From NCBI RefSeq assembly GCF_003002895.1, contig NZ_PVTI01000012.1, positions 33,418-97,417 of the forward strand: DNA of 64,000 bases, in the 5' to 3' direction. Under the pieces are notes generated by a model. That model was not told the origin of the DNA. It saw only the letters and a program-made list of their open reading frames with translations, and searched no databases. Shown one piece after another: positions 73 through 62,525 of the stretch. Origin of the DNA: Knoellia remsis. Its GTDB lineage: Bacteria; Actinomycetota; Actinomycetes; Actinomycetales; Dermatophilaceae. Position 1 is the stretch's first letter. Each line of letters begins with the position of its first letter. The position numbers were made by a program, and so were the translations under genes.

Positions 73-250
73 GACGAAGTGCCTCTCCTGAGCTCAGGGA
101 TGGGGTGGGGGGAAGGAACAGCCTAGGTGAGGCGAGACGTGTGACGCGGATCACACGGCATACGGCATGAGGAAGGATCGGCTGGCGACGTCTTCCTCGT
201 GTCCTGATCGTTCGGCCCGGATGACGCCGGGCCTGTCCCCAAGGAGCATC

Positions 251-802
251 ATGTCGAACACCTCGATCCCGCAGACCGGCCAGGAGAAGGAGCGCGCGCA
301 GGACCGCGAGCGCGCCCAGCAGGAGAAGGCCCAGGAGAAGGCGCAGGAGCGCCAGGCAGAGCAGCAGGCGGCGAACAGCCCGCTCAAGACCGACCGCGGC
401 ACGACCACCCTCGACGACACCGTCGTCGCGAAGATCGCCGGCATGGCGGCGCGTGAGGTCCCCGGCGTCTACGACATGGGCAATGCCGTCCGTCGCGCCT
501 TCTCGGCCATCTCGGAGCGCATCCCGAACGCCCAGACCAACGTCACCGGCGGCATCACCGTCGAGAAGGGCGAGACCCAGACCGCCATCGACGTGACCGT
601 CGTCGTCGAGTACGGCGCGTCGATCCTCGAGGTCGGCGAGGCCATCCGCCGCAACGTCATCGAGCAGGTCGAGGGCACGACGGGCCTCGAGGTCGTCGAG
701 GTCAACGTCAACGTCGTCGACGTGCACCTGCCGCAGGACGACCAGGGCGGCTCGTCCTCGAACACCGGCAGCACCAACCCCACCAAGACCGAGCTTCAGT
801 GA
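251..802 (+). CDS. Asp23/Gls24 family envelope stress protein (first copy)
   Basis: This 183-residue protein has a charged, Gln/Glu/Ala-rich N-terminal helix (about residues 10-45) followed by an Asp23/Gls24 domain beginning DTVVAKIAGMAAREVPGVYD and ending in the typical VEVNVNVVDVHL strand. In Gram-positive bacteria Asp23 is an abundant membrane-associated protein induced by alkaline or envelope stress and anchored through AmaP. The ATG at 251 was chosen because AAGGAG lies at 241-246; a longer upstream frame exists but lacks a binding site. It is the first gene of a collinear stress module extending to 4246. Confidence 0.88.
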   Translation: MSNTSIPQTGQEKERAQDRERAQQEKAQEKAQERQAEQQAANSPLKTDRGTTTLDDTVVAKIAGMAAREVPGVYDMGNAVRRAFSAISERIPNAQTNVTGGITVEKGETQTAIDVTVVVEYGASILEVGEAIRRNVIEQVEGTTGLEVVEVNVNVVDVHLPQDDQGGSSSNTGSTNPTKTELQ

Positions 803-869
803 CCGTCACGGTGGGGCCCGGCTCGTCCCTCCCCGACGGGCCGGCTCCCACCGGGAACAAGGAGTACCC

Positions 870-1046
870 ATGAAGACCACCCACCTCGCCCTGTTCATCG
901 GCCTCTTCCTCGGGGCCGCGCTGGCTTTTGGCAGCTTCACGCAGTTCTTCCTCGTCGTCGTCTGCGGCGCCATCGGGCTCGTCGTCGGCCTCTTCCTCGA
1001 AGGCCGCGTCTCCGTCCAGGGCCTCACCGACCGCCGGGGGCCGTGA
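870..1046 (+). CDS. Small two-helix membrane protein, DUF2273-like
   Basis: This 58-residue protein starts at ATG 870, preceded by AAGGAG at 859-864. It is almost entirely hydrophobic: two short membrane segments (about residues 5-20 and 25-43) are separated by a Gly/Ser/Phe turn and followed by a basic tail. Small DUF2273-type membrane proteins regularly accompany Asp23 and AmaP genes, and this position between two Asp23 genes fits that pattern. Its stop TGA overlaps a GTG start of the next gene. Family assignment is by size, topology and neighbourhood; there is no catalytic motif. Confidence 0.7.
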   Translation: MKTTHLALFIGLFLGAALAFGSFTQFFLVVVCGAIGLVVGLFLEGRVSVQGLTDRRGP

Positions 1047-1048
1047 CG

Positions 1049-2681: not shown

Positions 2682-3301
2682 ACCCGGTCGCCGCGGCGGA
2701 GCTGCGCACTCTCGTGCTGCGTGCCCAGGACGGTGAGGTCGAGGCGTTCGAACGCCTCGTGGACCTCACCCAGGGCCGCCTGTTCCGCACGGCGTTCATG
2801 CTCCTCGGCGACCGGCAGGACGCCGAGGACACGGTCCAGGAGTCGCTGCTGCTGGCGTGGCGGAGGCTGCACATGCTGGAGAAGCCCGACGCGTTCGGCG
2901 GCTGGCTCACCCGGATCTGCGTCCGGCGCGCGACCGACCTCGGTCGCCAGCGTGCCCGGCGCGCGACCGACGTCACCGCCACCGAGGACCTCGAGAAGCT
3001 GCCGTATGCCGCGGGCGCCGCGCCCGCGGCATACGGCACCGCCGCGTCAGGCACCACGGGCGCAACGGCATACGGCACCTCCCCCGAGCACACCGCCATC
3101 GTCGATGCGCAGCTGGGCGCCCTCACCCGCGTGCTCGGGTCGATCGACCCAGACCTGCGCGCCTGCTGGGTGCTGCGGGAGATCGACGGCCTGACCTACG
3201 ACGAGATCGCCCGAACCCTGGCGATCACCGAGCCGACCGTCCGCGGCCGGCTCGCGCGAGCACGCTCGCTCATCATCCGACGCATGGACGAATGGAGGTG
3301 A
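2678..3301 (+). CDS. ECF-type RNA polymerase sigma factor
   Basis: This 207-residue sigma-70 family protein has region 2 at about residues 10-90 (FERLVDLTQGRLFRTAFMLL, then DAEDTVQESLLLAW). Region 4 is at about 140-200, with the helix-turn-helix LTYDEIARTLAITEPTVRGR. The linker between them (about 108-135) is an Ala/Gly/Tyr-rich stretch encoded by copies of the CGGCATAC repeat, including a perfect 39-base palindrome. The first gene overlap (2678) and the following genes make this an operon with Asp23 proteins, so it probably controls that module in response to envelope stress. No typical anti-sigma factor is adjacent; the next small protein might act as one. Confidence 0.88.
   Translation: MNPVAAAELRTLVLRAQDGEVEAFERLVDLTQGRLFRTAFMLLGDRQDAEDTVQESLLLAWRRLHMLEKPDAFGGWLTRICVRRATDLGRQRARRATDVTATEDLEKLPYAAGAAPAAYGTAASGTTGATAYGTSPEHTAIVDAQLGALTRVLGSIDPDLRACWVLREIDGLTYDEIARTLAITEPTVRGRLARARSLIIRRMDEWR
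3000..3038. repeat. Perfect 39-base palindrome built on GTATGCCG, inside the sigma-factor gene
   Basis: The left arm TGCCGTATGCCGCGGGCGC (3000-3018) is the exact reverse complement of the right arm at 3020-3038, around a single central base. It contains GTATGCCG at 3004 and CGGCATAC at 3027. A third copy follows at 3066-3073. The insert is in frame and encodes an Ala/Gly/Tyr linker between sigma regions 2 and 4. Confidence 0.9.
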
Positions 3302-4269: not shown

Positions 4270-4920
4270 TCACACCCCTTGGTCGAAGACGTGCCGCCGG
4301 ACCCAGGCATGCATGGCGATGGCCGCGGCCGCACCGGCGTTGATCGACCGGGTCGACCCGAACTGCTCGATGTGCAGGACCACCTCGCACTCGGCGCGCA
4401 TCGCCTCCGACAGTCCCGGCCCCTCCTGCCCGAACACGAGCATTGCGTCGCGCGGCAGGTCATAGGTCTCGAGCGGCCGGCTGCCGGGGAGGTTGTCGAT
4501 CCCGATGAGCCGTATGCCGCGTGCGCGCGCCCACGTCGCGAGGTCGCCTGCCGTGGGGTGGTTGTGCTCGTGCTGGTAGCGGTCGGTGACCATCGCACCA
4601 CGGCGGTTCCAGCGGCGACGGCCGACGATGTGGAACGCGGCGGCGCCCATGGCGTTGGCGGTCCGCACGACGGAGCCGATGTTGAAGTCGTGCTCCCAGT
4701 TCTCGATGGCGACGTGGAACGCGTGCCGGCGCGTGTCGAGGTCGGCGACGATCGCGTCGTGCCGCCAGTAGCGGTAGCGGTCGACGACGTTGCGCCGGTC
4801 GCCTTCACGGAGCAGGTCGGGTTCAAGCCGCTCGTCATCCGGCCACGCCCCCTCCCACGGCCCGACACCGACGACGCCGTCCCCCGCACCAGTCGCGTGT
4901 CCGCCCGAGCCCTGAGTCAC
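4270..4920 (-). CDS. TrmH/SpoU-family RNA 2'-O-methyltransferase
   Basis: This 216-residue protein of the SPOUT superfamily shows all three SpoU motifs: motif 1 NIGSVVRTANAMGA (residues 80-93, with the conserved Asn80 and Arg86), motif 2 LVFGQEGPGLS (161-171) and motif 3 IEQFGSTRSINAGAAAAIAM (185-204). These form the knotted S-adenosylmethionine site. It transfers methyl to a ribose 2'-OH of tRNA or rRNA; the exact target cannot be read from sequence. The first 45 residues are a Gly/Asp-rich extension. A CGGCATAC motif at 4512 on the coding strand supplies a rare ATA codon in the GIRL stretch. Confidence 0.88.
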   Translation of the reverse strand: MTQGSGGHATGAGDGVVGVGPWEGAWPDDERLEPDLLREGDRRNVVDRYRYWRHDAIVADLDTRRHAFHVAIENWEHDFNIGSVVRTANAMGAAAFHIVGRRRWNRRGAMVTDRYQHEHNHPTAGDLATWARARGIRLIGIDNLPGSRPLETYDLPRDAMLVFGQEGPGLSEAMRAECEVVLHIEQFGSTRSINAGAAAAIAMHAWVRRHVFDQGV

Positions 4921-5332: not shown

Positions 5333-5462
5333 GACGCCTCCTGCAGGGGTGGAGTGCTTTGCCCTTCCACCGTGCGCCCGGCCCTTCCCGACCGCAAGGC
5401 CCCACCGCACGAAGGCGAGCCTGGGCCGCGCACCGCGCGGGACGGCATACGCTCTCTCCGTG

Positions 5463-6549: not shown

Positions 6550-7849
6550 CGTGGCACGCTGACACGTTCTCAGTGTCGAGTTGTGGCTGCATCCCCCGGG
6601 CCCGAGTCAGCCACAATCCGACATGAGTGGAGGCAGCGGGCGTGAAGGCGCCGGCGCGGTGCAGGGCGAGGCCGGCCCACACCGCGACGAGGCACCCGAG
6701 CCCCCCGGCGACGACGAACGACACTCGCGGCCCCAGCGTCGACGCCGCCAGTCCGCCGAGTGCGAGGGCGGCCATGGTGCACGTCCGGGCCATGCCGTTG
6801 ATGAAGGCCAAGGCCTTGCCCCGCTCGTGACCCGGGACGGCGCGGACGATGACGGCGAAGAGACACGCGTTGCTGACGGCGTTGGCCAGGCCGAGGGTCG
6901 CACCCCAGCCATAGAGCCACGTCACGCTGGGCGCGAGGCCCTGACCGACCTGGGCCAGCGACATGACGGCGAGACAGGTGACGATCGCGCGCAGCCGCAG
7001 GTCGTCACGGCGCATCCAGCCCGCTGCCACCGCACCGACGAAGGCACCCGCCCCGGTCGCCGTCTGCCAGAACCCGAACTCCGACTGCGTCGCACCGACG
7101 GCGTCGCGGGCGAGGAAGACCTCGACGGCGTTCATGCTCTCGAGCGTCACGACGAAGGGCAGCAGCGCGAGGACGAGGACCCAGACGACCCGGTGTGAGC
7201 GCACGACGGTGAGGCCCGCGCGCGGGACGAGGCTGAGCCAGCGCCTGGACCCGGCCTGTTCCGGAGTGCTCGGATGGGGCGCCGGCCGACTGTGCACGAG
7301 CACGCCGGCCGTGAGAAGCGCGAAGGTCGTCGCGGCGTCGACGAGGAACACGACCCGGTCGCCGTGCAGCTCCACGAGGACACCACCGACGCCGGCGCCG
7401 ACGGGGGACGCCACGGCGGCGAGGGCCTGCTGGATCGACACGAGCCGACCGACGTGGTCGTCGCCGACCGCCCGGCTCAGCACCGAGCTCCACAGCGGGT
7501 TGGTGAACGCGAAGCCGGTCTGCAGCACCAGGACGAGCAGGAAGGTCTCGGCCAGCCCGTCGACGAGCGCGAGGCCCACGAGCGCCGTCACCTGAGCGCC
7601 GTGGCCGAGGCCGAAGACGAGCCGAGGGTCCCCCCGGTCGGCCACCTCCCCCGCGAGCCCCATCGTGACCACGACGGGCAGCGAGAAGCACACGAGCAGG
7701 AGCGTCACGGCATACGGCCCGGCGCCGGAGTCGTGGACCCGCAGCAACAGCGCGACCATCGCCATCGCGTCGCCCGCGATGGAGAGCCCAGCCGCGGGCA
7801 CGGCGAGGCGGACGTCTCGCACACGCCATACGTGAAGCACTTCCTTCAT
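6476..7849 (-). CDS. MFS transporter (drug/metabolite exporter type)
   Basis: This 457-residue major facilitator protein has about twelve hydrophobic segments between residues 12 and 395. Its motif-A region, LAGEVADRGDPRLVFGLG (about 63-80), is typical of MFS-3 (enterobactin/macrolide exporter-like) proteins. The last ~60 residues (from about HRAGAF) form an unusual Arg/His-rich tail overlapping the next gene; true termination may have been lost. The start codon complement (7847-7849) sits inside a 16-bp inverted repeat shared with the divergent ArsR-type gene. That regulator therefore probably represses it. The substrate is unknown. Confidence 0.78.
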   Translation of the reverse strand: MKEVLHVWRVRDVRLAVPAAGLSIAGDAMAMVALLLRVHDSGAGPYAVTLLLVCFSLPVVVTMGLAGEVADRGDPRLVFGLGHGAQVTALVGLALVDGLAETFLLVLVLQTGFAFTNPLWSSVLSRAVGDDHVGRLVSIQQALAAVASPVGAGVGGVLVELHGDRVVFLVDAATTFALLTAGVLVHSRPAPHPSTPEQAGSRRWLSLVPRAGLTVVRSHRVVWVLVLALLPFVVTLESMNAVEVFLARDAVGATQSEFGFWQTATGAGAFVGAVAAGWMRRDDLRLRAIVTCLAVMSLAQVGQGLAPSVTWLYGWGATLGLANAVSNACLFAVIVRAVPGHERGKALAFINGMARTCTMAALALGGLAASTLGPRVSFVVAGGLGCLVAVWAGLALHRAGAFTPAASTHVGLWLTRARGMQPQLDTENVSACHDDRHAMAAPRIRCDRHGPRRVPPR

Positions 7850-7870: not shown

Positions 7871-7899
7871 GTTCTCCCTCGGTCAACTACCCTGTCCGT

Positions 7900-8478
7900 A
7901 TGCCGCGCAGTCGCCGACGTTCGACCCTCACCATCGATGACCCGAAGGCCCTGCGCGCCCTCGCCCATCCCGCCCGGCAGCGCGTCATCAACGAGCTCTA
8001 CAACGGAGAGGTGCTCACGGCGACCGAGGCCGCGCGGCTGTGCGACCTCACCCCCTCGGCGATGAGTTACCACCTGAGAGCACTGGAGAAGTGGGGCATC
8101 GTCGAGCGCGACGAGGACAGTGGCGACGGTCGCGAGCGGCCATGGCGGGCCGTCGCCGACAACATCACCGTCTCGGGCACCGCGCACGCCGCGGCCGGCG
8201 TCGCGGCGAGCAGCACCTTCCTCGTGCCGTGGGCGGACGAGGTCCGCCAGGGCCTCGAGCGGGCCGCCCGGACACTGGCCCACGACATTCCCGACAAGCG
8301 CACGCAGATGAGCCGCGGCCGCCTCTGGCTCACCGCCGAGGAGGCGAAGGAGCTCGACAAAGAGCTGCGTGCCGTCCTCCAGCCCTACAAGAAGCGCACC
8401 CTCAAGAACCACCCCGAGGGAGCCGTTCCCCGCGACGGCTACTGGATGCTGCTGCCACCGCCGGGCAGCGACGTGTGA
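7900..8478 (+). CDS. ArsR-family winged-helix transcriptional regulator
   Basis: This 192-residue protein has an N-terminal winged helix-turn-helix at about residues 10-75 (DPKALRALAHPARQRVINEL, then the recognition region LTATEAARLCDLTPSAMSYHLRAL interrupted by Asn-Gly). A helical C-terminal part ends in LLPPPGSDV. No Cys-rich metal site is visible, so the ligand is probably organic. The ATG at 7900 lies six bases after TACCCT (7888-7893), consistent with a leaderless transcript. It is divergent from the MFS gene and shares its operator, so it likely represses that exporter and itself. Confidence 0.82.
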   Translation: MPRSRRRSTLTIDDPKALRALAHPARQRVINELYNGEVLTATEAARLCDLTPSAMSYHLRALEKWGIVERDEDSGDGRERPWRAVADNITVSGTAHAAAGVAASSTFLVPWADEVRQGLERAARTLAHDIPDKRTQMSRGRLWLTAEEAKELDKELRAVLQPYKKRTLKNHPEGAVPRDGYWMLLPPPGSDV

Positions 8479-9142: not shown

Positions 9143-10353
9143 CGGGACAGCTCCAGCTCGAGTCGGGTGCCGCAGGGTTCTCCGGGAGTGACCGACACGG
9201 TTCCGCCGACCTCGCCTGCACGTGCCCGCAGGCCGTGGAGCCCGAATCCCGTTGTCGCAGTAGTGGGGTCGAACCCGCCACCATCGTCGGTGACGCACAG
9301 CGTGACCGACTGGGCGGCATACGAGAGAACGATCCGCGCGGTGCGAGCACCGGAGTGCCGTCGCACGTTCGACAGCGCCTCCTGCGCCGCCCGGAGGACG
9401 ACGACCTCGGCGTTGCCGCCGAGCGGCACCGGCTCTCCGGCGACCTCCGCGTCGACGCGTATGCCGGTTTCGCGCGTCACGGTCTCGGCCAACCGGGTGA
9501 GCGCCTCACCGAGGGTGCGCGACTGCAGGTGACCCGGGGTGAGCTCGGCGACGATGACCCGGGCCTCGGCGAGGTTGTCGGTGGCGGTGCGCTCGATCAT
9601 GGCCAGGCGCTCGCGGACGGCGGCGGCGTCGTCGCGGTCAAGGGCAGCGGTCGCGGCGCGGGACAGGGCGATGACGGAGGTGAAGCCCTGCGCGAGGGTG
9701 TCGTGGATCTCGCGGGAGAGGCGGCTGCGCTCCTCCTCGACCCCCTGGGCGCGTTCGACGGCGGCCAGCTTGGCCTGGGTCGCATGGAGCTCGTCGATCG
9801 TCTGGGCGCGGCTGTCGGCCTCGCGCACGACGCGGTCGATGAAGAGGCCGAGAGTCACCGACAGCACGAGCATGATGATCGTGCTGATGGCGATGCCGAC
9901 GAGCTCGTCCTCGGTGCGCGGCGCCTGCCACACCCGCGCGATCGCCAGGGCGATGATCGCGACGACGACGGTGACGGCGGCACGGTTGCGGGGCAGGCTC
10001 GCCCACGTCTGCGGGAAGAGGCCGAAGGTGAGCACCCAGGCCGAGCCCGGCCCGTCGAGAGCGGTGAGCACGACCATGAGCGACCAGGCGACGACGGCGT
10101 AGGTCATTGCTGCGCGGCGGTTCTCGTCTCCCAGGCCGCGCCACCCCCAGATGCCATAGGCGGCAGCGATGCCGACGACACACACGACCTGCCAGAGCAG
10201 ATGCTCGCCGGCCTCGAACGCGACGACGACGAGGGTCGCGACGAGCAGCACCCCGAAGAGCAGGTGCCACCACACGACCTGGCGCCGCCACATCTCGTCG
10301 AGCTCGACCGAGGACTGGCCGATGCGCGGTGTGCAGGCCTCCTCGTCGCTCAT
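9139..10353 (-). CDS. Sensor histidine kinase, HisKA_3 (NarX/DesK-like)
   Basis: This 404-residue membrane kinase has about six hydrophobic segments between residues 28 and 175. A dimerisation helix with the phospho-acceptor follows (SREIHDTLAQGF, His217), then a C-terminal HATPase_c domain (N-box AAQEALSNVRRHSGAR, G-box DDGGGFD and GFGLHGLRARAGEVGG). The start may be the ATG at 10353 or a GTG at 10359; the permease stop lies just upstream at 10361. Together with the overlapping response regulator it forms a two-component system in a four-gene unit with the ABC exporter. Confidence 0.9.
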   Translation of the reverse strand: MSDEEACTPRIGQSSVELDEMWRRQVVWWHLLFGVLLVATLVVVAFEAGEHLLWQVVCVVGIAAAYGIWGWRGLGDENRRAAMTYAVVAWSLMVVLTALDGPGSAWVLTFGLFPQTWASLPRNRAAVTVVVAIIALAIARVWQAPRTEDELVGIAISTIIMLVLSVTLGLFIDRVVREADSRAQTIDELHATQAKLAAVERAQGVEEERSRLSREIHDTLAQGFTSVIALSRAATAALDRDDAAAVRERLAMIERTATDNLAEARVIVAELTPGHLQSRTLGEALTRLAETVTRETGIRVDAEVAGEPVPLGGNAEVVVLRAAQEALSNVRRHSGARTARIVLSYAAQSVTLCVTDDGGGFDPTTATTGFGLHGLRARAGEVGGTVSVTPGEPCGTRLELELSR

Positions 10354-10360
10354 GGACACA

Positions 10361-12048: not shown

Positions 12049-12097
12049 GCGGCCAGCGTGCCGCCGCAGGCGAGTCGCGCGCCCCGACCGACGGACG

Positions 12098-13791: not shown

Positions 13792-13802
13792 ACGGACCCA
13801 GC

Positions 13803-46447: not shown

Positions 46448-46536
46448 GTGACTCTTTTCCTTCGTATGCCGTGACTCACCCGGGCGGGCGGGTCACCTGT
46501 GGTGGCGGGCTGGCGTGGTCGATGACGGGCGGGCCG

Positions 46537-49847: not shown

Positions 49848-49965
49848 GGTTCGCCAGTATGCCGTCCGCTCACCACGCGCTCCCACCCCACCACGCGCTC
49901 CCACCGCACCCGCCCCGCGCGTCCCGCCCCTCCGACTGGTTGCCCAGCCCCGGCGCCCCTACCCG

Positions 49966-50096: not shown

Positions 50097-50576
50097 TCAG
50101 GGGCGCCAGAGGACGAGGGCCTGCGAGGCGGAGCCACCCGGCATACGGCGACGGGGCCGCTCACCGAGGCGACCGACCCGGATCTCGCCACCGGGCCCCG
50201 CGGAGAAGATCCGCGAGCCGCCGGCCACCGCCCCGTCGAGCCGACCCACCTCCGCGGTGAGCTCGGCGACGCGGCTGCGCAAAGCACTCACCTGGTTCTC
50301 GAGCTCGAGGATGCGGGCGATCCCGGCGAGGGAGACGCCCTCCTCCTGGGAGAGGCGTTGCACCTCGCGGAGCCGCTCGACGTCACGGGCCGAGTAGCGG
50401 CGCCCGCCACCGCGGGTCCGCGACGGCGTGACGAGCCCGAGCCGGTCGTACTGCCGCAACGTCTGCGCGTGCATCCCGGCGAGCTCGGCCGCGACCGAGA
50501 TGACGAAGACGGGAGCCTCATCATCCGGCCGCGGCGCGTTCTCGCTCGTGCTGCGTCGACCGTCGCGGACGGCCAT
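50097..50576 (-). CDS. hspR: Heat-shock repressor HspR (MerR family)
   Basis: This 159-residue protein has a MerR-type helix-turn-helix with VISVAAELAGMHAQTLRQYD, RLGLVTPSRTRGGGRRYSAR and DVERLREVQRLSQEEGVSLA (about 20-95). A coiled coil and a Gly/Arg-rich tail follow. HspR binds HAIR operators with DnaK as co-repressor. Its target sites are visible upstream of dnaK (two) and clpB (one) in this window. The ATG at complement 50574-50576 lies one base from the dnaJ stop. Confidence 0.93.
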   Translation of the reverse strand: MAVRDGRRSTSENAPRPDDEAPVFVISVAAELAGMHAQTLRQYDRLGLVTPSRTRGGGRRYSARDVERLREVQRLSQEEGVSLAGIARILELENQVSALRSRVAELTAEVGRLDGAVAGGSRIFSAGPGGEIRVGRLGERPRRRMPGGSASQALVLWRP

Positions 50577-51630: not shown

Positions 51631-51730
51631 CAGCGCCTCCTCTCGTCGGATGTGTTCTGCGTATGCCGCTGCGCTGGCGCGTCATACGGGTTCCGTTGCG
51701 GTGCAACGGGTTTCGTGATGCTGGCCCGGG

Positions 51731-52417: not shown

Positions 52418-54318
<1,901 letters not shown>

Positions 54319-54363: not shown

Positions 54364-54433
54364 TTAGGACCGTCGGCCCAGCCCGGCAACCTCACCGAGA
54401 GAGGTATGCCGCGTGCGCGCCGCACGCTCCAAA

Positions 54434-54587: not shown

Positions 54588-55366
54588 TGGACGCTGGTCT
54601 GGTGGCCACGCAGCCGCGCGAGCGGATGGTCGAGTTCCGGTACACGTCCTTCATGGGCCAGGACGTGATCACGACGCTGAACTTGGCTCCGTCGGCGGAG
54701 GTGGCCCGGGGACTACCGGTTCGGTCCTTCCCCTCCTATGCGGGGATGGGGCACTACCCAGGTTGGTGGTGGTCCGCCACAGTGGGAGACCACGTGGGCT
54801 ACGAGAGCCTGCTGGAGCGCGACCGGCTGATGCTTGCCGACTTCGACCGTGACGTGGTGGCCATCGCGAGCCAGCCATTCGGCATCTCCGGTCGCGACGG
54901 CGATGCGCTACGTCGACACGTGCCGGACTACCTGCTGCTTCATCGCAACGGAACTGTGGAGGTCGTCGACGTCAAGCCTGCCGACATGTTGGACAAGCCC
55001 GATGTCGCGGTGGTTCTCGACTGGACTGGACGATTGCTGGCCGTACGCGGCTGGAGGTACTCGATCTGGTCGGGCGCGGATCCGATCGAACTGACGAACG
55101 TCCGCTTCCTCGCCCAGGGACGTCGCGCCCGGTTCGTCGATTCCGACGCGATGGCCACGCTGGCCCGTGCAGGTCGTCCTGGACGCACTCTCGGTGCAGC
55201 CCTGGCCGAGGCATCTCGGTCACCCCACTCCAGTGCCACCCTGCGGGCGGCGCTCATCGCGCTGCTCTGGAAGCAGACGTGGCAGGTCGCGCTCGATCAG
55301 CCGATCGATATGAGCACCGAGATCCGGACGATTCGAGAGGTCCATGACGAACAACGCTGTTCTTGA
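54587..55366 (+). CDS. tnsA: TnsA-like transposase endonuclease subunit
   Basis: This protein is up to 259 residues long; the GTG at 54587 is the first start, and GTG 54602 or ATG 54626 are alternatives. The TnsA restriction-endonuclease fold is seen as YESLLERDRLMLADFD (Glu73), HVPDYLLL (Asp114) and VEVVDVKP (Lys130), giving the Glu-Asp-x-Lys nuclease core. A helical C-terminal part would contact TnsC. TnsA cuts the 5' ends so that transposition is cut-and-paste. It overlaps tnsB by 23 bases. Confidence 0.85.
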   Translation: MDAGLVATQPRERMVEFRYTSFMGQDVITTLNLAPSAEVARGLPVRSFPSYAGMGHYPGWWWSATVGDHVGYESLLERDRLMLADFDRDVVAIASQPFGISGRDGDALRRHVPDYLLLHRNGTVEVVDVKPADMLDKPDVAVVLDWTGRLLAVRGWRYSIWSGADPIELTNVRFLAQGRRARFVDSDAMATLARAGRPGRTLGAALAEASRSPHSSATLRAALIALLWKQTWQVALDQPIDMSTEIRTIREVHDEQRCS

Positions 55367-57344
55367 GGTCCGCGTCGGCAGCCGGCTCTGGTTCGACGGG
55401 GAGGCGTGGTCGGTGTGCGAGGTCGACGCGACCACGGTGAGGCTGAACGCCGGCGACGGACGGTATCGCACGGTGACCGTGGCAGAGCTGATCGACACTG
55501 CAAGTCCCGCCGAGTCCGGGCACCAACCGGACCCCGACGGGCTGCCCCTCCCGCGCAACGTCGCCTGGGCAAGTCTGTCGAGCAAGAAGAGGTCCAGCCT
55601 CGAGCGGGAGGTGACCGTCTTCAGCGTCCTGTTGGAGTCCGCGTTGGATGAGCAAGCAATTGCCATCCGGCGGGCGGCCGATGATCTCGGCGTTTCCATC
55701 CGTACCGTCCAGCGCAGGCTGCGCCGTTTCCAGCACCTCGGTCCGGAGGGTTTGATCGACGAACGTGTTCTCCAAGAGACCCGGCGTAGCGTGGATCCGC
55801 GCTGGGACGAGGCGTGCGTCGCGATCCTGCACGAATACGTCAACCGGTCGACACCGTCGAAGCAGACGGTCATCAGCCGGGCAACGAAGGCGTTCCTGCG
55901 CGAGGTGCCCGACGGAAAGCCACCGACCCGGGCAGTGGCGTATCGGCGAGTCGTCGAGCTCGACGCGGGCAAGTACACGTTCAGCGACGCACCCCGGCGT
56001 CGATCCGTCGCGAAGCGGCCCCAGGGAGTCCTCGGTCAGCTTCGCCCGACCCGGCCAGGCGAATACGTCCTGATGGATGGATACAAGCTCGACGTCTTCG
56101 CGATGGAGCCGGTGACCATGCGCTGGGTCAACACCGAGCTGACGGTGGCGATGGACCTCTTTGACCGCTCGATCAAGGGAATCCGCCTGCGGCCGGTGGC
56201 AGCGAAGTCCGCGGATGTGGCCAGTGTCCTCCTCCAGTGCCTGACTCCGCAGCAGTGGGGCCGGGAGCCCAGCGCGCCAACTGGCCCCTACGCCGGTGTT
56301 CCCGAGAACGTGGTCCTCGGGTCGATCGGGGTCCTTCCCGACACCATCGTCATCGACCACGGCAACGTCTATATGTCCGAGCACACGCTCGGTTCCTGCC
56401 GTCGACTCGGAATCTCAGTCCAGCCCGCGATCCCCGACAAACCGACAGACAAGCCCGTCCTCGAGCGGTTCTTCCGGACGCTACGCCAATCACTGCTGGA
56501 CAAGCTCAGCGGATACAAGGGGCCGAACATCGCTTCCCGCGGCAAGGACGTGGAGAAGGGCGCGTTCTACTTCGTCACCGAGCTTGAGCAGCTGATCAGG
56601 GAGTGGGTCGGCGACGTCTACCACGTCAAGGCACACAAGGGATTGCGGGACCCACGCCTACCCGGCGTGGACCTCTCGCCCCAGGAGATGTTCAACCGCG
56701 GCATCGAGGTCTCCGGCCTGCTGCGACTCCCAACGCGCGAAGACCTGCGCTACGAGCTCATGGAGGTCCAGTGGCGCAAGATCAACCACTACGGCGTGGA
56801 CATCGACACCCGTCGCTACGACGGGCCCGCCCTCAACCCGTACCGAGGACACCGCTCGAACTACGGGGGAACTCACCCAGGGAAGTGGCCGATCCTGGTC
56901 GACGTCGACGACATCCGGACCGTCTACTTCCGGGACCCGGCCAACGACGCTTGGCATCCCTTGGAATGGCGTCTCGCCGTGGGAATCAACGCCCCATTCA
57001 GCAAGGACGCCGCCGACTACACGCGGCGACTGACCATCCGAGAAAACCGGCACGTCGACCCGCAGCAAGCCGTCGAGGATCTGCTCGCCCGATGGACACG
57101 TGAGGAAGTGATGGGCCGTCGGGAACGCAACCTAGCGATCCGCATCGCCAGCATGCCCAGCTCGTTCGAGCCCGATTCCGACGTCAAACCCGAGGAACGG
57201 GCCTCGTTGCCTGGAGTGATCGACCTGCTGAGCCGACGCCAGGAACACCGCCCTCAAGAACATCCCGACGACCTGGATGAGGTGTTCGAGCGCTACTACG
57301 CCGCCCAGCCCGACGCCGGCGGCTTCGACCTACTCGACGACTGA
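55344..57344 (+). CDS. tnsB: TnsB-like DDE transposase (Mu C-terminal domain)
   Basis: This 666-residue protein has N-terminal DNA-binding helix-turn-helix domains (AIRRAADDLGVSIRTVQRRL near 107-126). Its RNase H-like core has catalytic Asp245 (VLMDGYKLDVF), Asp338 (IVIDHGNVYM) and Glu374 (KPVLERFF), a DD-36-E spacing. The beta-barrel Mu C domain follows (about 485-560). It cuts and joins the 3' ends after binding the terminal repeats. The Glu-rich C-terminus (DDLDEVFERYY) probably binds TnsC. Confidence 0.92.
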   Translation: MTNNAVLEVRVGSRLWFDGEAWSVCEVDATTVRLNAGDGRYRTVTVAELIDTASPAESGHQPDPDGLPLPRNVAWASLSSKKRSSLEREVTVFSVLLESALDEQAIAIRRAADDLGVSIRTVQRRLRRFQHLGPEGLIDERVLQETRRSVDPRWDEACVAILHEYVNRSTPSKQTVISRATKAFLREVPDGKPPTRAVAYRRVVELDAGKYTFSDAPRRRSVAKRPQGVLGQLRPTRPGEYVLMDGYKLDVFAMEPVTMRWVNTELTVAMDLFDRSIKGIRLRPVAAKSADVASVLLQCLTPQQWGREPSAPTGPYAGVPENVVLGSIGVLPDTIVIDHGNVYMSEHTLGSCRRLGISVQPAIPDKPTDKPVLERFFRTLRQSLLDKLSGYKGPNIASRGKDVEKGAFYFVTELEQLIREWVGDVYHVKAHKGLRDPRLPGVDLSPQEMFNRGIEVSGLLRLPTREDLRYELMEVQWRKINHYGVDIDTRRYDGPALNPYRGHRSNYGGTHPGKWPILVDVDDIRTVYFRDPANDAWHPLEWRLAVGINAPFSKDAADYTRRLTIRENRHVDPQQAVEDLLARWTREEVMGRRERNLAIRIASMPSSFEPDSDVKPEERASLPGVIDLLSRRQEHRPQEHPDDLDEVFERYYAAQPDAGGFDLLDD

Positions 57345-57355
57345 CCGGGGGAGCA

Positions 57356-58432
57356 GTGACCAATCCGTGGGCCGCCTGGCTTCGCACCAACGATCGCCAG
57401 TCCTACGTGCTGGCCGACAAGGTCGGCTGGGACGCCTTCGTCAACTCTGGCCCGCGCGACCCCCTGCCGTCCCTGTCGCGAGATGAAATGGGCGCGCTGT
57501 CGGACGACGCTTTGGAGGACTACAACGCAGCGCGTGCGGTGTGGCACGCCAACCCCGCCGCCGTCCGCACCACTCAGGTCGCGGCGGCCTACTCCGTCAT
57601 CGACCAGGTCATGGCTGGCAACCATCGCGACGGCGACCGACTCCGCGGAGCCGTGGTCATCGACTCTGAACCGGCACTGGGCAAGACCACCATCGCCACC
57701 CGCTACGGCAGGGACTTCCACCGGCGTATCTACCGGCGGTATGGGCCGACGACCGATACCGGATCCCAACGGTTGCCGGTCGTCTACGTGCCGCTCCGGA
57801 GCGCAACCACGCTCAAGGACCTGAACAAGCAGATCCTCAAGTTCTACCGGCACCCAGCCGGCTCCCGAGACACCAAGGCCGATCTGGTCGCCCTGGTCGT
57901 CGACGCCGTCACCACTGGCGAGACCCGTCTGATCATCATCGACGACCTTCACTTCGTTGACTACAGCCACCGTGACGGCAAGGCGGTCGCCAACCACCTG
58001 AAGGGGTTGGCCAACGCTCTACCGGTGACGTTCATGTACACGGGGGTGGGCCTGCTGGGGCGGCGCTTCTTCACCGAAGGCACGCAAGGGAATCCCAAGT
58101 CCGTTGAGGTGGCCCAGATGGGTCGTCGGACCACACGCTGCGCTGTGGCCCCGTTCACGCTCTCGACCGACGCCGGATTCCGGGCCTGGGTCGACCTGCT
58201 TGCTGCCCTGCAGTCACAGCTCCTGCTGGCCGACGCCCCGCCCGATGTCCTCACCCGGCACGCCCGGGAGCTGTTCCGCCGCACACAGGGTCGCATCGGC
58301 TCACTGACCGGTCTGCTCGAGCACGCGTGCCACGTCGCTGTCGCCACCGGGATCGAGGACATCACGGCCGACGTCCTGTCCATGTCTGTCGCCGACAATG
58401 CCTCCGAGACCAGTGCTGCAGCCGTGGGCTGA
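57356..58432 (+). CDS. tnsC: TnsC/TniB-like AAA+ target regulator
   Basis: This 358-residue AAA+ ATPase has a somewhat degenerate Walker A, IDSEPALGKTTIA (about 102-114, Glu/Pro replacing the first Gly region), Walker B LIIIDDLHFV (192-201) and sensor TFMYTGVGLLG. TniB/TnsC filaments pass target information from TniQ to the transposase. The gene follows tnsB by 11 bases and overlaps tniQ by 35. The start GTG 57356 has GGGGGAG before it. Confidence 0.88.
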   Translation: MTNPWAAWLRTNDRQSYVLADKVGWDAFVNSGPRDPLPSLSRDEMGALSDDALEDYNAARAVWHANPAAVRTTQVAAAYSVIDQVMAGNHRDGDRLRGAVVIDSEPALGKTTIATRYGRDFHRRIYRRYGPTTDTGSQRLPVVYVPLRSATTLKDLNKQILKFYRHPAGSRDTKADLVALVVDAVTTGETRLIIIDDLHFVDYSHRDGKAVANHLKGLANALPVTFMYTGVGLLGRRFFTEGTQGNPKSVEVAQMGRRTTRCAVAPFTLSTDAGFRAWVDLLAALQSQLLLADAPPDVLTRHARELFRRTQGRIGSLTGLLEHACHVAVATGIEDITADVLSMSVADNASETSAAAVG

Positions 58433-60125
58433 CCCCGTCCGGCCATCGGCGGTGGCTGGACCGCGAGCACTGCGGACGATCGTCGGTGGGTATGACATCT
58501 ACCGCTGGCCCATCTACGTCCCCCGAGGAGACGATGAGTCGCTCGCCGGATGGCTGCGGCGGCTTGCTCATCGCTACGGCATCACGGTCACCGGCGTCCT
58601 GGCCGAACTCGGCATCGACCACCGCAGCCAGGCACAGCCTGACCTGCCGGCCATGGTCGAGGCAGACCCGACTGGCTTCGCCCGGGCCGGGCTCGACCCG
58701 CCTCAGCAAGCCGCCCGCTGCTCCGTCATCGGGGCCTCGCTCGACCGGCTCGACGCGCACTACTGGTCCGACATTCGGTGCCGCCGCAGCCAACGCTGGA
58801 CCCGATCCAGCCGCTTCTGCCCCCGCTGCCTCGCCGAAACCGGACAATGGGCCGAGACATGGCAGCACCCCTACCACCTCGCCTGCCTCAACCACGGCGT
58901 TCTGCTGGAGTGGCGATGCCCCTACTGCCACGCCGCGCCCTTCGCCAAACCCACCTGGCTCGCCCACGACGGCAGCCCGACCGCCTGCCACGACTTCATC
59001 GACACCTCCACCGGCAAGCGATACCGCGCACGGTGCGGCACCCAGCTGAGCGAGACCCCGACCGTGGAGGCGCACCCCGACCTACTGGGCGCTCAGGAGT
59101 GGCTTTGGACGCTCATCGCCGCTGCCTCGCGCGAGGAGCAGGTAGTCGTCGCCGGCTTCCATGTCCCTGCCGCGACGGCATACGAGGCAGCAGCGGAGAT
59201 CATCACCGAGAACACCCTCGACCCGAAGATCTCCGACATCCGTTTCGCGGAGGAGCATGGCCTACAGGTCGCGCACCTCCTGCTCACCCAGCCCTCGCTG
59301 CGCGACGCCGCCTCCGTCGCCGCGGAAGTGCGCGGCTTCAACGCCCAAGAAGGCGTTGCTCCCATTGGCCCGCTGTTCCACGTGCAACAGCGGCCACGCA
59401 ACGGCTTGCTGACCGCAATCTCGCTCCAGCAGCATCAAGGTCAGCTCACCGTGGGCGCCGAACTGAAGTTCCGCATCGGAACGCCAGCCCCCTGCTACCC
59501 CCAAGCCTGGCGAGCCACGACGACGCCGCTCACGCCAGCGGCGTGCCTCCCGGATCTGCCGATGTCGTCAATCCCCAGCACCCTCTGGCCCGGATCCATC
59601 ACGCTCGGCTCAGCGGAACTCGACGACCGCCACGGCGTCGACACCCCGCTCGGACGCGCCTTCGCCGCGATCGCGCTGGCCCGCTTCGCCAGCGACCGCG
59701 GTTGGCGACTCATCGCCGTCAACCTCGGCATGCCCGCCCACTGCGCCAGCACCGGCGCCCGGCACTGGCACGCCATCGACAAGGCCGGGCACTGGCCCAC
59801 CTACGTCCAAGCGATCAGCCGCCTCTTCGAGCTGCTCCACGCCGATTCGCCTCCAATCGACTACGAACGCCGACGCATCACCGCCCAACCCGCGGCAATA
59901 CAAGCCCAAGGCCGGCGGCTCTTGCCCGACGCGACACGAGAAGACCGTCGCGGGTTCGGCGCGAGGCTCTGGACGCTCTATACCGGCAGCGAGATCCAGT
60001 TCGCCCCAGCACCCCTGTCCGAGGGGCGACAGCCAGGCGGGCCCGCACCCGACGAGATGATCGCGGCTGCGGCGGCAGCACTGGGGAAACCACCCGACGA
60101 GCCGCTCGTCTGGCATCCGCCTTGA
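58398..60125 (+). CDS. tniQ: TniQ/TnsD-family target-selection protein
   Basis: This 575-residue protein has an N-terminal TniQ domain (about 35-215): YRWPIYVPRGDDESLAGWLR followed by zinc ligands Cys141, Cys144, His160, Cys163, His166, Cys174, Cys177. The remaining 350 residues are helical with Trp-rich segments. This is longer than the short TniQ proteins of CRISPR-associated transposons and similar in size to TnsD, which binds a fixed attachment site by sequence. No cas genes are present, so direct recognition of a site near dnaK is the simplest idea. Confidence 0.88.
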   Translation: MPPRPVLQPWADPVRPSAVAGPRALRTIVGGYDIYRWPIYVPRGDDESLAGWLRRLAHRYGITVTGVLAELGIDHRSQAQPDLPAMVEADPTGFARAGLDPPQQAARCSVIGASLDRLDAHYWSDIRCRRSQRWTRSSRFCPRCLAETGQWAETWQHPYHLACLNHGVLLEWRCPYCHAAPFAKPTWLAHDGSPTACHDFIDTSTGKRYRARCGTQLSETPTVEAHPDLLGAQEWLWTLIAAASREEQVVVAGFHVPAATAYEAAAEIITENTLDPKISDIRFAEEHGLQVAHLLLTQPSLRDAASVAAEVRGFNAQEGVAPIGPLFHVQQRPRNGLLTAISLQQHQGQLTVGAELKFRIGTPAPCYPQAWRATTTPLTPAACLPDLPMSSIPSTLWPGSITLGSAELDDRHGVDTPLGRAFAAIALARFASDRGWRLIAVNLGMPAHCASTGARHWHAIDKAGHWPTYVQAISRLFELLHADSPPIDYERRRITAQPAAIQAQGRRLLPDATREDRRGFGARLWTLYTGSEIQFAPAPLSEGRQPGGPAPDEMIAAAAAALGKPPDEPLVWHPP

Positions 60126-60143
60126 AGGGCAGCGAGACCGGGC

Positions 60144-60593
60144 GTGAGGCGCATCGAAACGCGCCCAGCGTGGGCCCTCGGAGATGAGCCGACCTACCCG
60201 ACGCGCGATCTCAACGTCCTGGCCGCCACGCTCGCCGCCGGCGAGATCGGCAGCGAACACACCCATCGCGCCGGCTGGCTCGCCAGCTATGCACCCGACG
60301 TCGAGATCGTCGGATACCTAGACCACGTCATCCCCGGGCCCACCTCGATCATGGACCTGCGCGGCAGTCTCGGCCGTTGCCTCCAGCACACGCTCCTGCG
60401 CTACGAAGACGGCCATCAGTGGCCCCATCTCGAGAAGTGGGAACTCGACTGGGCCGTCGCCGACCCGATCGGCTACCAGGACCGTCGCGTCCCGACTTGG
60501 CTCCGGGATGATCTCAGCCCGACCGAGCCACTCCAGGATCTCGACCTGCGGAGCGGGAGGACCACCGTCATCGGGGCAGGGGTACGTAATTGA
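60144..60593 (+). CDS. Unknown protein downstream of tniQ
   Basis: This 149-residue protein starts at GTG 60144, 18 bases after the tniQ stop. It has Trp-rich segments (GWLASYAPDVEIVGYLDHVI, LEKWELDWAVADPIGYQDRR) and no membrane helix or known motif. Its position directly behind the transposition genes suggests an accessory transposition protein or the first cargo gene. I do not recognise it. Confidence 0.55.
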   Translation: MRRIETRPAWALGDEPTYPTRDLNVLAATLAAGEIGSEHTHRAGWLASYAPDVEIVGYLDHVIPGPTSIMDLRGSLGRCLQHTLLRYEDGHQWPHLEKWELDWAVADPIGYQDRRVPTWLRDDLSPTEPLQDLDLRSGRTTVIGAGVRN

Positions 60594-60699
60594 GGGTTTG
60601 CGCCCTACTCAGGTTCGATCGACATCGCGACCAGCAGCCACACGTTCAGCCCGACGCGGCGCGCCCACTTGCCAATGTGACGAAGAGGAGAATATCCTC

Positions 60700-61302
60700 A
60701 TGCGTATGTCACATCTCTCGCCCGAAGAAGTCGGTCGACTTCAGTTGGTCGCTTTCTGGATTCGCGAGGTGTTCGACGAGCGGGGCCACCACATCGGCGA
60801 TGCCCTCGAGCACGATCCCAGCTTCAAGGATGGGCAACGCCCCCGGTCTGGATTAGCCCGAGCACTCATGCGCCAAGCCGTGACCATCGCGGCCAGCCAT
60901 GTGGGCCTCGACGTCGTGCCCGGCGAAGGGGGCAGTTACTCCCTCGAGAGTCTTGACCGGACATACCACCGCTGCTACCGAGTGCGCACGGCGGAAGTCA
61001 GTGAGGGCGGGTTCCGGATCCTCTCGAGCAGCGACAGCATCATGAAGACGGACACAGACTCCCTGTTCACAGAGGAGCCGTGGGTCCTCGGCTACACGCT
61101 CAACCTGGACAATCAGATCGAGCACCTCTTCGCGGCGGAGGTTCGCGACTATGTCGACGGCAGCCCAGGCGAACTAATCCTGGGGCACGCGTACATGCTG
61201 CCTGGGGCTCCTCCCACCGAACCCGGTGCCTTCGGCGGCACCAACGAGGGCCTGCCTTGGGACGACGACTCCCTCGGCGAAGAAGAGTCTGGCACGGCTT
61301 GA
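60700..61302 (+). CDS. Unknown protein paired with the XRE-ImmA/IrrE gene
   Basis: This 200-residue protein starts at ATG 60700 behind an AGAGGAG site. It has a helical N-terminal half (LSPEEVGRLQLVAFWIREVF) and a beta-rich C-terminal half with YHRCYRVRTAEVSEGGFRIL and EPWVLGYTLNLDNQIEHLFA. It ends in an acidic Asp/Glu-rich tail. No family is recognised. It is followed with almost no gap by an HTH-ImmA/IrrE gene, the layout of a two-gene regulatory, toxin-antitoxin or defence pair carried as transposon cargo. The 106 bases before it contain no other feature. Confidence 0.6.
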   Translation: MRMSHLSPEEVGRLQLVAFWIREVFDERGHHIGDALEHDPSFKDGQRPRSGLARALMRQAVTIAASHVGLDVVPGEGGSYSLESLDRTYHRCYRVRTAEVSEGGFRILSSSDSIMKTDTDSLFTEEPWVLGYTLNLDNQIEHLFAAEVRDYVDGSPGELILGHAYMLPGAPPTEPGAFGGTNEGLPWDDDSLGEEESGTA

Positions 61303-61352
61303 AGACCAAACAGTTCTCACGTCCGAAATCACCCGACACAGAGAAGGGCACC

Positions 61353-62525
61353 GTGTTCAGCGATCCCGCGGACACCGGCCAGCGCATTCAGCGACTGCGC
61401 CTCGTCAACTCGTGGAGCCAGGCACAACTCTCGGAGACGGCAGCGGTTGCGACCGGGCTGGTGTCCATGATCGAGCACGGCCGCCACGGACTCGACAGCG
61501 ACAGCCTCCAACGAGTGGCAGATTCGCTGGGGTGCGCACCTGAATACCTCGTCCGTCCTAGTCGTCAACCAATCACAACCCGGCCATGGCTACGGGCGTA
61601 TGCCGACGCTTCAAAGAAGGCCGTCGACCGATACGTCGCCGACACCGAAGTGGCCGTCGAGGCCATCGAATCACTACGGCTCAAACGGCTCCCCGAGCTC
61701 CTACCCACGTTTGACGACGACCTCAACGACGACCACGCCATCGAGGAGTTCGCGAGAGACGTACGGTCAGCAGCCGGCCTCCAGTCCGATGACGTTGTCG
61801 GCAACTGCATCCGACGGGCCGAACGCCTAGGTGTCGTCGTGCTTCCCATGGATGACGAGTTGGGTCGCCACCTAGGTTTGTCCATGCGAGTTGATGGGAT
61901 ACCCGTTATCCGTGCAAGCCGTCCGCGACTTGACCAGAGTGGGCTCGTTAGCCCATCCGGCGATCGCCAGCGGTTCACCGTCGCCCATGAGCTCGGACAC
62001 TTGGCGTTGCATGCAACGACCCCACCCCCGTCAACAGCGCCTCAGGCGCGCCTCGTGGAACAGCAAGCCCATCGGTTCGCTGGCGCTTTTCTCGCGCCCG
62101 CAGAGCCGTTACTTAGCGACTTGGACAGGCTCGGCGGTCGAGTGACCCTCAGCACCCTCACCAGGCTGAAGGAGATTTGGGGAGTAGCGATCAAGATGCT
62201 CGTCGTACGACTGCGACAGTTAGGGCTCATCGACGATCAGCACGCACGAAGTTTGTACAAGCAGATCAGCGCAAGGAAGTGGAACACGAGCGAGCCAGTC
62301 GCTGTAAGCCACGAACAGGCCGTCTGGTTAGAACAGGCACTTTCTCGCGCCGACCTTGGTGCTCACAGCGCGGCGGACGCTCTCGGCCTCGACGTTCGAT
62401 ACGTGCGGACCTGGCTGAACTGGGACCTCGACACCTCCATCAACGAAGACCTCCCCGAAGGCGTCCTGCCTATACGACGACCGGCGAGCAAGCACGCTTC
62501 CACGCACCAACTGATCCGACGATGA
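61353..62525 (+). CDS. XRE helix-turn-helix protein fused to an ImmA/IrrE metallopeptidase
   Basis: This 390-residue protein has an XRE DNA-binding domain at about 8-68 (TGQRIQRLRLVNSWSQAQLS, then GLVSMIEHGRHG). A zinc peptidase domain of the ImmA/IrrE type has His212-Glu213-x-x-His216 in RFTVAHELGHLALH and EQQAHRFAGAFLAP as the third-ligand helix. An additional C-terminal helix-turn-helix-like segment lies at about 320-365. GTG 61353 is chosen for AGAAGGG; a TTG at 61299 overlapping the upstream stop is an alternative. Such fusions cleave repressors or sense phage. Confidence 0.85.
   Translation: MFSDPADTGQRIQRLRLVNSWSQAQLSETAAVATGLVSMIEHGRHGLDSDSLQRVADSLGCAPEYLVRPSRQPITTRPWLRAYADASKKAVDRYVADTEVAVEAIESLRLKRLPELLPTFDDDLNDDHAIEEFARDVRSAAGLQSDDVVGNCIRRAERLGVVVLPMDDELGRHLGLSMRVDGIPVIRASRPRLDQSGLVSPSGDRQRFTVAHELGHLALHATTPPPSTAPQARLVEQQAHRFAGAFLAPAEPLLSDLDRLGGRVTLSTLTRLKEIWGVAIKMLVVRLRQLGLIDDQHARSLYKQISARKWNTSEPVAVSHEQAVWLEQALSRADLGAHSAADALGLDVRYVRTWLNWDLDTSINEDLPEGVLPIRRPASKHASTHQLIRR

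What the first reader, a model, noticed from the sequence alone, without database searches (positions are those of the whole stretch)
156..61605. A dispersed 8-mer, GTATGCCG/CGGCATAC, is massively over-represented across the host DNA
Reading both strands by eye I counted about 57 exact copies. At an assumed 70% GC a random 64-kb sequence would have about two. Copies occur in coding sequence in different reading frames (CGG-CAT-AC as Gly-Ile-Arg with the rare ATA codon at 4512, 9459 and 29820; as Ala-Tyr at 22551 and 24000; as Tyr-Ala at 22393 and 29667), so selection or insertion acts on DNA and not on protein. This recalls HIP1 or uptake-sequence type motifs, or a methylase or nucleoid-protein site, but I know of no description for this octamer.
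Basis: partly seen in the sequence, partly recalled or inferred. Interest (0 to 1): 0.78.

Follow-up and report, generated by a model that had tools for sequence, protein, structure and literature searches.

The report
Actinobacterial DNA self-recognition octamer with dialects
The eight-base word GTATGCCG occurs about 3,300 times in this actinobacterial genome and hundreds to thousands of times in most examined genomes of its family, with one-letter "dialects" in some genera, and it is likely an address label by which naturally transforming cells would prefer DNA of their own kind, a habit so far reported from only two Gram-negative families.

Summary
In detail: 30 + 27 = 57 exact GTATGCCG/CGGCATAC in the window, 3,277 in the genome (inferred to be a Knoellia, family Intrasporangiaceae). 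In 496 kb, window included, there are 457 copies against 4.5 expected. Codon use does not explain it, strands are balanced (so not KOPS), Knoellia lacks RecC (so not RecBCD-Chi), and copies are scarce in the two mobile stretches and one phage examined. By my thresholds 114 of 186 family genomes (33 of 53 genera) carry the word or a dialect (GGATGCCG; smaller samples show GAATGCCG and GTATG[A/G]CG); one genome from each of 14 other families shows nothing. Two genomes carry two dialects; single species lack it within carrier genera. This resembles the uptake sequences (DUS/USS) of Neisseriaceae and Pasteurellaceae, stated in print to be the only families with them. The likely reader is a Tad/Flp competence apparatus like that of Micrococcus luteus. 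That step is inferred and weakly supported: tad-1 goes only loosely with the word, several carriers (this strain among them) have lost or broken tad-1, many tad-1 genomes lack the word, and no receptor was found. A HIP1-like word of unknown function is the main rival. Uptake is untested.

The parts
156..163 (-). octamer copy
3004..3011 (+). octamer copy, left arm of a hairpin pair with 3027
3027..3034 (-). octamer copy, right arm of the hairpin pair
3066..3073 (-). octamer copy
4512..4519 (+). octamer copy
5443..5450 (-). octamer copy
7708..7715 (-). octamer copy
7898..7905 (+). octamer copy
9315..9322 (-). octamer copy
9459..9466 (+). octamer copy
11339..11346 (+). octamer copy
11733..11740 (-). 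octamer copy
13786..13793 (-). octamer copy
14670..14677 (+). octamer copy with intergenic extension GTATGCCGTCCG
15968..15975 (+). octamer copy
17316..17323 (+). octamer copy
17552..17559 (-). octamer copy
18574..18581 (-). octamer copy
24892..24899 (-). octamer copy
27794..27801 (+). octamer copy in 17-bp tandem array 27771-27884
27828..27835 (+). octamer copy in tandem array
27845..27852 (+). octamer copy in tandem array
27877..27884 (+). octamer copy in tandem array
28923..28930 (-). octamer copy
29820..29827 (-). octamer copy; GGATGCCG in 5 of 7 alignable congeners, kept in none
30380..30387 (+). octamer copy; kept in 1 of 7 alignable congeners
30671..30678 (+). octamer copy; kept in 6 of 7 alignable congeners
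32429..32436 (-). octamer copy; kept in 7 of 8 congeners
33751..33758 (+). octamer copy, left arm of a hairpin pair with 33769
33769..33776 (-). octamer copy, right arm of the hairpin pair
33976..33983 (+). octamer copy; kept in 8 of 8 congeners
36542..36549 (+). octamer copy
36585..36592 (+). octamer copy
38949..38956 (+). octamer copy with extension TCCG; kept in 5 of 5 alignable congeners
41285..41292 (-). octamer copy, divergent pair with 41311
41311..41318 (+). octamer copy
42662..42669 (-). octamer copy
43005..43012 (+). octamer copy
44605..44612 (+). octamer copy
45196..45203 (+). octamer copy, left arm of a hairpin pair with 45223
45223..45230 (-). octamer copy, right arm; also in tandem array 45213-45277
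45246..45253 (-). octamer copy in tandem array
45268..45275 (-). octamer copy in tandem array
46464..46471 (+). octamer copy; kept in 6 of 6 alignable congeners
49857..49864 (+). octamer copy with extension TCCG
50139..50146 (-). octamer copy
51153..51160 (-). octamer copy
51177..51184 (-). octamer copy
51661..51668 (+). octamer copy
52557..52564 (-). octamer copy, inside an HSP70 gene
54404..54411 (+). octamer copy
59176..59183 (-). octamer copy, inside the TniQ gene of the transposon stretch
61598..61605 (+). octamer copy, inside the motif-poor right end
55344..63921 (.). motif-poor right end with mobile genes: transposase-like (Mu C-terminus), TniB, TniQ, IrrE-type peptidase, IS21 IstB
   Evidence: Pfam; 2 copies from 55344 on against 55 in the rest

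Best explanation
GTATGCCG is likely a DNA uptake sequence: a short, oriented self-label, spread over the chromosome, that a surface DNA receptor of naturally competent Intrasporangiaceae is predicted to bind, so that DNA of the own kind would be taken up and recombined in preference to foreign DNA. Shown: enrichment, sharpness, codon-level maintenance, strand balance, scarcity in the mobile DNA examined, one-letter dialects, absence from single species of carrier genera, and ComEC and Tad genes in the family. Inferred: each transformed copy would carry the preferred word back into the genome, so that uptake bias keeps and spreads the copies (the route proposed for DUS and USS, recalled), and a dialect arises when the receptor changes its preference by one base. 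Inferred and only weakly supported: the receptor is part of a Tad/Flp competence pilus built by two clusters like M. luteus tad-1 and tad-2, which hands the DNA to ComEC.
For: (1) 3,277 copies, one per 1.09 kb; 457 against 4.5 expected, while all one-mismatch words together are 359 against 259. (2) 292 coding copies, kept by rare synonymous codons, 153 with and 139 against the gene. (3) Strand chi-square 8.0 over 23 stretches; 20-kb counts vary less than chance (mean 18.9, variance 10.8, n = 20). (4) Denser between genes, 2.27 against 0.68 per kb. (5) Two mobile stretches: 2 copies in 15.4 kb against 14.3 expected, P = 7e-5; Tetrasphaera jenkinsii phage TJE1 2 in 49 kb, a 20.9-kb piece of its host 16. 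(6) 114 of 186 family genomes carry it or GGATGCCG; 14 genomes of 14 other families have 2 to 102 copies, 0.6 to 3.6 times their controls. (7) Dialects: GGATGCCG 3,619 to 4,480 copies in 5 genomes of 3 genera, both words in G070 and G071; GAATGCCG 32 against 1.7 in 36.5 kb of G020, GTATG[A/G]CG besides GTATGCCG in 20 kb each of G011 and G012 and in Flexivirga. (8) ComEC and two Tad clusters are in the family; in M. [quoted passage not shown] (9) 38 of 60 aligned cells keep the octamer in congeners against 30% for octamers of equal GC (12 of 22 sites alignable, background not matched for frame).
Against: No uptake experiment is known to me for any carrier. tad-1 is neither sufficient nor strictly necessary: 50 of 61 non-carriers have its TadA; 3 of 114 carriers lack a strong match (G119, G135, G141); 7 of 114 carriers lack a good TadF match (G003, G008, G069, G139, G141, G190, G194; three of these under 90% complete). 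This strain's own tad-1 tadA is split by a 6.7-kb insertion. The Fisher test (P = 7e-4) ignores phylogeny. No residue of the four tad-1 pilins tracks the GG dialect and the pilins are not notably basic. G046 and G131 keep tad-1 and lack the word. Close convergent pairs (11) hardly exceed divergent ones (8) and are fewer than tandem ones (20). The median gap is near random (770 against 725) and the longest (10.5 kb) exceeds expectation, so evenness holds for 20-kb and 5-kb counts only. In G023 the word sits in a longer, near-fixed repeat, so not every carrier need be the same case.
Confidence: 0.6

Rival explanations
1. A HIP1-like word: a site for an orphan methylase, nucleoid or repair protein, kept by selection on DNA for a reason other than uptake.
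For: HIP1 is also an enriched octamer, has lineage variants and differs between relatives (PMC4390886, passages). The tad-1 link of the present word is weak, and this strain keeps the word although its tad-1 tadA is split.
Against: HIP1 and its named variants are palindromic; this word is not. Scarcity in a transposon stretch, an insertion and a phage is not expected of a site that selection installs in any resident DNA, although young elements would also lack it.
Confidence: 0.27
2. A Chi site that steers a recombination nuclease.
For: Eight bases, asymmetric, frequent; Chi is one of three named classes of enriched oligomers (PMC4390886, passages).
Against: RecC (PF04257) has no match in 9 of 9 Knoellia genomes, all carriers; strands are balanced, where Chi is expected to be biased (recalled).
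Confidence: 0.03
3. FtsK/SpoIIIE orienting sequence (KOPS/SRS/AIMS).
For: The capped listing looked one-sided beyond 115 kb of contig 1.
Against: Fetched stretches there show both strands (e.g. L024 10/8, L025 12/9); chi-square 8.0 over 23 stretches.
Confidence: 0.01
4. A short mobile or REP-like repeat, or terminator hairpins, copied about the genome.
For: 45 of 163 copies not wholly inside genes read GTATGCCGTCCG; tandem arrays at 27771 and 45213; G023 copies lie in a longer near-fixed repeat; a 38-bp palindrome with two octamers recurs.
Against: 292 of 457 sampled copies lie in coding sequence, mostly through rare synonymous codons; the flanks of the window's copies vary.
Confidence: 0.06
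5. Codon or dipeptide usage, composition, or sequencing-adapter carry-over (an Illumina adapter holds CGGCATAC).
For: The adapter string is printed in an abstract listed; Tyr-Ala and Ala-Tyr are mildly frequent (1.16 and 1.25 of expectation).
Against: Synonymous test; both strands and six phases; none of the 57 contexts continues as the adapter.
Confidence: 0.01

Closest known systems
DNA uptake sequence (DUS) of Neisseriaceae, read by minor pilin ComP
   Same: Hundreds to thousands of copies, non-palindromic, in genes and between them, dialects differing by one or few bases, two dialects in one genome (PMC3630211 passages; PMC12616744 introduction).
   Different: Gram-positive, high-GC host; 8-base core against about 9-12; inverted pairs not clearly favoured here; no known receptor; likely Tad/Flp instead of a type IVa pilus; uptake untested. 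That both words hold ATGCCG is probably coincidence (recalled).
Uptake signal sequence (USS) of Pasteurellaceae
   Same: About one per kb (recalled for H. influenzae); a weaker downstream extension; two dialects; receptor long unknown (PMC12616744 introduction).
   Different: Extension here is GC-rich (TCCGC), not AT-rich; other phylum.
HIP1 of cyanobacteria
   Same: Enriched octamer with lineage variants.
   Different: HIP1 is palindromic and linked to methylases of GATC and CGATCG (PMC4390886, abstract start, passages); this word is oriented.
Flp-pilus-dependent natural transformation of Micrococcus luteus (tad-1, tad-2, comEA/EC)
   Same: Two tad clusters of like gene order plus ComEC in the family (correspondence inferred from order and pilin type, not compared with M. 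luteus sequences).
   Different: tadB and tadC are separate in the tad-2-like cluster here and a small Flp-like gene sits in the tad-1-like one. The phrase 'uptake sequence' does not occur in PMC4322843 or PMC8467076.

Membership tests
DUS/USS uptake sequence | Short word far above expectation, hundreds to thousands of copies | tested here: met
DUS/USS uptake sequence | Non-palindromic, both strands alike | tested here: met
DUS/USS uptake sequence | Inverted pairs forming hairpins between genes | tested here: inconclusive
   11 convergent pairs under 40 bp among 434 neighbour pairs, against 8 divergent and 20 tandem: present, not clearly favoured
DUS/USS uptake sequence | Dialects among related genera | tested here: met
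DUS/USS uptake sequence | Scarce in foreign DNA | tested here: met
   two mobile stretches and one phage only
DUS/USS uptake sequence | Competence machinery in carriers | tested here: inconclusive
   ComEC in 25 of 25 family genomes examined, own included; tad-1 in most, not all, carriers
DUS/USS uptake sequence | A receptor that binds the word | tested here: inconclusive
   no tad-1 pilin residue follows the GG dialect; binding itself not testable
DUS/USS uptake sequence | The word raises DNA uptake or transformation | not testable with these tools
   bench test needed
HIP1 | Palindromic core | tested here: not met
   sequence itself; dialects also oriented
HIP1 | Cognate methylase | not tested
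   no methylome looked at
Chi (RecBCD) | RecBCD present | tested here: not met
   RecC in 0 of 9 Knoellia
KOPS/SRS | Strand skew along the replichore | tested here: not met

The most novel reading that the evidence does not exclude
A third, independent invention of self-DNA recognition in natural transformation, and the first in Gram-positive bacteria: Intrasporangiaceae mark their chromosomes with GTATGCCG, a Tad/Flp competence pilus reads the mark, and one-letter dialects act as mating barriers between genera.
Probability: 0.45. Interest if true: 0.93.

Novelty: new variant of a known kind. Interest (0 to 1): 0.85.

Why it matters
[quoted passage not shown] A third case in a distant phylum, with dialects and apparent recent losses, would show the trait is not a Gram-negative oddity. 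It would give many natural replicates for how such words spread and switch, point to possibly transformable strains among Terrabacter, Tetrasphaera/Nostocoides, Phycicoccus and kin, and give a cheap design rule for their genetics: put the octamer in the DNA.

Tried and rejected
KOPS: suggested by the capped listing, refuted. RecBCD-Chi: refuted. Codon usage and dipeptides: (Tyr-Ala and Ala-Tyr 1.16 and 1.25 of expectation in own genome, but 1.00 and 1.03 in other Knoellia). Loss of the tad-1 pilins as the cause of loss of the word in G105: searches found none next to tadABC, but one search found TadF about 40 kb away, so the locus is split, not deleted; and carrier G194 has no TadF match. Dialect-tracking residues in tad-1 pilins: none for GG. 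Papers on the octamer itself: searches listed 20 of 643 and 20 of 2,606 papers that hold the strings; none of the listed titles or abstract starts concerns such a motif. Viral contigs with hairpin pairs (71 loci, chosen for holding a pair): counted only; among the 12 densest, which one search printed, no piece of 5 kb or more exceeds 0.64 per kb. Plasmid search with a window gene: 1,604 distant matches, no use.
Full report
WHAT IS THERE. The genome holds 3,277. In the window plus 22 sampled stretches (495,785 bases) there are 457 against 4.5 expected by a third-order Markov model with the copies masked; all 24 one-mismatch words together number 359 against 259 expected. So the whole octamer is kept, not a loose composition. 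None of the 57 contexts continues as the Illumina adapter that happens to hold the same string.

WHERE. With a simple codon-based gene caller (mine, unvalidated) 292 of 457 copies lie inside genes, 154 between genes and 11 across a border; density 0.68 against 2.27 per kb. Orientation in genes is 153 to 139. In the two commonest frames the word uses rare codons: xxG-TAT-GCC-G occurs 128 times and its synonym with TAC 17 times, though TAT is 13.7% of Tyr codons; xCG-GCA-TAC 109 times and with GCC 47 times, though GCA is 5.8% of Ala codons. Strands are balanced (chi-square 8.0 over 23 stretches). Counts are more even than Poisson in 20-kb bins (mean 18.9, variance 10.8, n = 20) and 5-kb bins (4.64 and 3.51, n = 98), but the median gap is near random (770 against 725) and the longest, 10.5 kb, is longer than expected. 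Of 163 copies not wholly inside genes 45 continue as TCCG, and T follows the word in 54% of intergenic and 43% of coding copies, so a weaker downstream extension probably exists. Eleven close convergent pairs could form GC-rich hairpins; close divergent (8) and tandem (20) pairs occur too.

FOREIGN DNA. The right end of the window carries transposon genes (transposase-like, TniB, TniQ, IstB) and 2 copies; a 6.7-kb insertion with two tyrosine recombinases in the strain's tad-1 locus has none; together 2 against 14.3 expected (P = 7e-5). I met these two elements by chance and examined no others, so this is not a survey. Phage TJE1 of the carrier Tetrasphaera jenkinsii, 57.7% GC, has 2 copies in 49 kb (0.6 expected), a 20.9-kb piece of its host 16.

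RELATIVES. The best hits of the strain's TadB are Knoellia species, and equal contig length ties G006 to 'Janibacter' HTCC2649: the genome is a Knoellia (inferred). NCBI puts Knoellia in Intrasporangiaceae. I call a genome a carrier at 90 copies per Mb or more of GTATGCCG, or 500 or more of GGATGCCG, and intermediate at 33 to 90. Of 186 genomes of the family (53 genera; completeness 58 to 100%), 107 then carry GTATGCCG, 5 GGATGCCG, 2 both, 11 are intermediate and 61 have neither; 33 genera have carriers, 15 none, 5 only intermediates. One genome from each of 14 other families has 2 to 102 copies, 0.6 to 3.6 times its control. In named pieces of at most 21 kb the word is dense in Knoellia, Terrabacter, Humibacillus xanthopallidus, Pedococcus, Tetrasphaera/Nostocoides, Arsenicicoccus, Flexivirga, some Intrasporangium and some Phycicoccus; pieces of Janibacter, other Phycicoccus, Intrasporangium flavum and the outgroup Arthrobacter hold 0 or 1, Ornithinimicrobium 2. 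'Janibacter' HTCC2649, a carrier, is the exception in name, and Nostocoides sp. Soil756 (L184) has none.

DIALECTS. G024 and G068 use GGATGCCG (67 against 10.4 in 80 kb; 27 against 2.4 in 20 kb). G020 uses GAATGCCG (32 against 1.7 in 36.5 kb; not counted family-wide). In 20-kb pieces G011 and G012 also show GTATGACG and GTATGGCG above expectation, and Flexivirga pieces hold many. Family-wide, GGATGCCG reaches 3,619 to 4,480 copies in five genomes of three genera, and G070 and G071, of one of these genera, have both words (2,195 and 1,217; 2,099 and 1,189). Single species lack the word inside carrier genera: G046 (89% complete), G105, G131. In G023 the word is part of a longer near-fixed repeat (24 copies), a caution about counting every carrier alike.

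COMPETENCE GENES. ComEC is in 25 of 25 family genomes examined, own included. Two Tad clusters occur: one ordered tadA-B-C, small Flp-like, TadE, TadF, TadG and often followed by prfB, and one with tadA, tadB, tadC, Flp-like and TadE-like genes (the second read from ORFs only). I match them to M. luteus tad-1 and tad-2 by order (inferred); in M. luteus both are required for transformation (PMC4322843, passages). TadA of the tad-1 type has a strong match (E at most 1e-70) in 111 of 114 carriers and 50 of 61 non-carriers (Fisher P = 7e-4 without phylogeny). Twelve family genomes of at least 89% completeness lack it and do not carry the word (G022 and G057 fall in my intermediate class with counts equal to control); but carriers G135 and G141 (100% complete) lack it too. 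TadF lacks a good match in 7 of 114 carriers and 11 of 61 non-carriers. The strain's own tad-1 tadA is interrupted: its two parts match one gene in relatives. Thus the word can outlive tad-1, and tad-1 can exist without the word. That fits slow decay after loss, and unselective uptake elsewhere, but it also fits independence. No pilin residue follows the GG dialect.

READING. A paper on HIP1 names three classes of enriched oligomers: Chi, uptake sequences and HIP1 (PMC4390886, passages). Chi of RecBCD is out, since 0 of 9 Knoellia have RecC; KOPS is out by strand; HIP1 is palindromic. The uptake class matches on count, orientation, strand balance, scarcity in foreign DNA, dialects and two-dialect genomes (PMC3630211, passages). 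I therefore take a DNA uptake sequence as most likely (0.6), with the Tad/Flp link as an unproven second step. Natural transformation is reported for M. luteus (PMC4322843) and for Rhodoluna and Aurantimicrobium of Microbacteriaceae (PMC11577799, passages), actinobacteria of what I recall as the same order; in the listings (12 of 13 papers shown; 15 of 130; 10 of 906) I saw no report for Intrasporangiaceae.

NOVELTY. [quoted passage not shown] My searches of the held library (several listings capped) showed no description of this octamer.

Noticed in passing
L130 (G000:C3:40001-60000), 10168-16899: The strain's tad-1 tadA is split by a 6.7-kb insertion with at least two tyrosine recombinases; no octamer inside.
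   Followed up: partly
window 55344-63921: Transposon genes (transposase-like, TniB, TniQ; Tn7/Tn5053-like by recall) followed by an IrrE-type peptidase and an IS21 IstB.
   Followed up: partly
window 39878-40091: 53-bp tandem array (4.1 copies) holding CACTGATTGCGCACAG; CAATCAGT is strongly enriched in the genome sample.
   Followed up: no
window 33745-33782: A 38-bp palindrome holding two octamers recurs exactly at G000:C7:17167-17204 and in like form in congeners.
   Followed up: no
G000 stretches L017-L036: Palindrome CCAATTGG 40 copies against 1.1 expected in 397 kb.
   Followed up: no
G018 (L050-L053): Palindrome GGACGTCC 42 against 6.8 in 80 kb, in a genome without the octamer: possibly HIP1-like.
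   Followed up: no
G105 (L154-L158): GTACGGCG 57 against 14.4 and GTACGCCG 32 against 11.7 in 100 kb; tad-1 split by about 38 kb between tadC and TadF.
   Followed up: no
   Followed up: no
L248: A contig labelled Vibrio cholerae strain 35D encodes a tad-1-type locus scoring like the Arthrobacter ones: probably contamination of that assembly.
   Followed up: no
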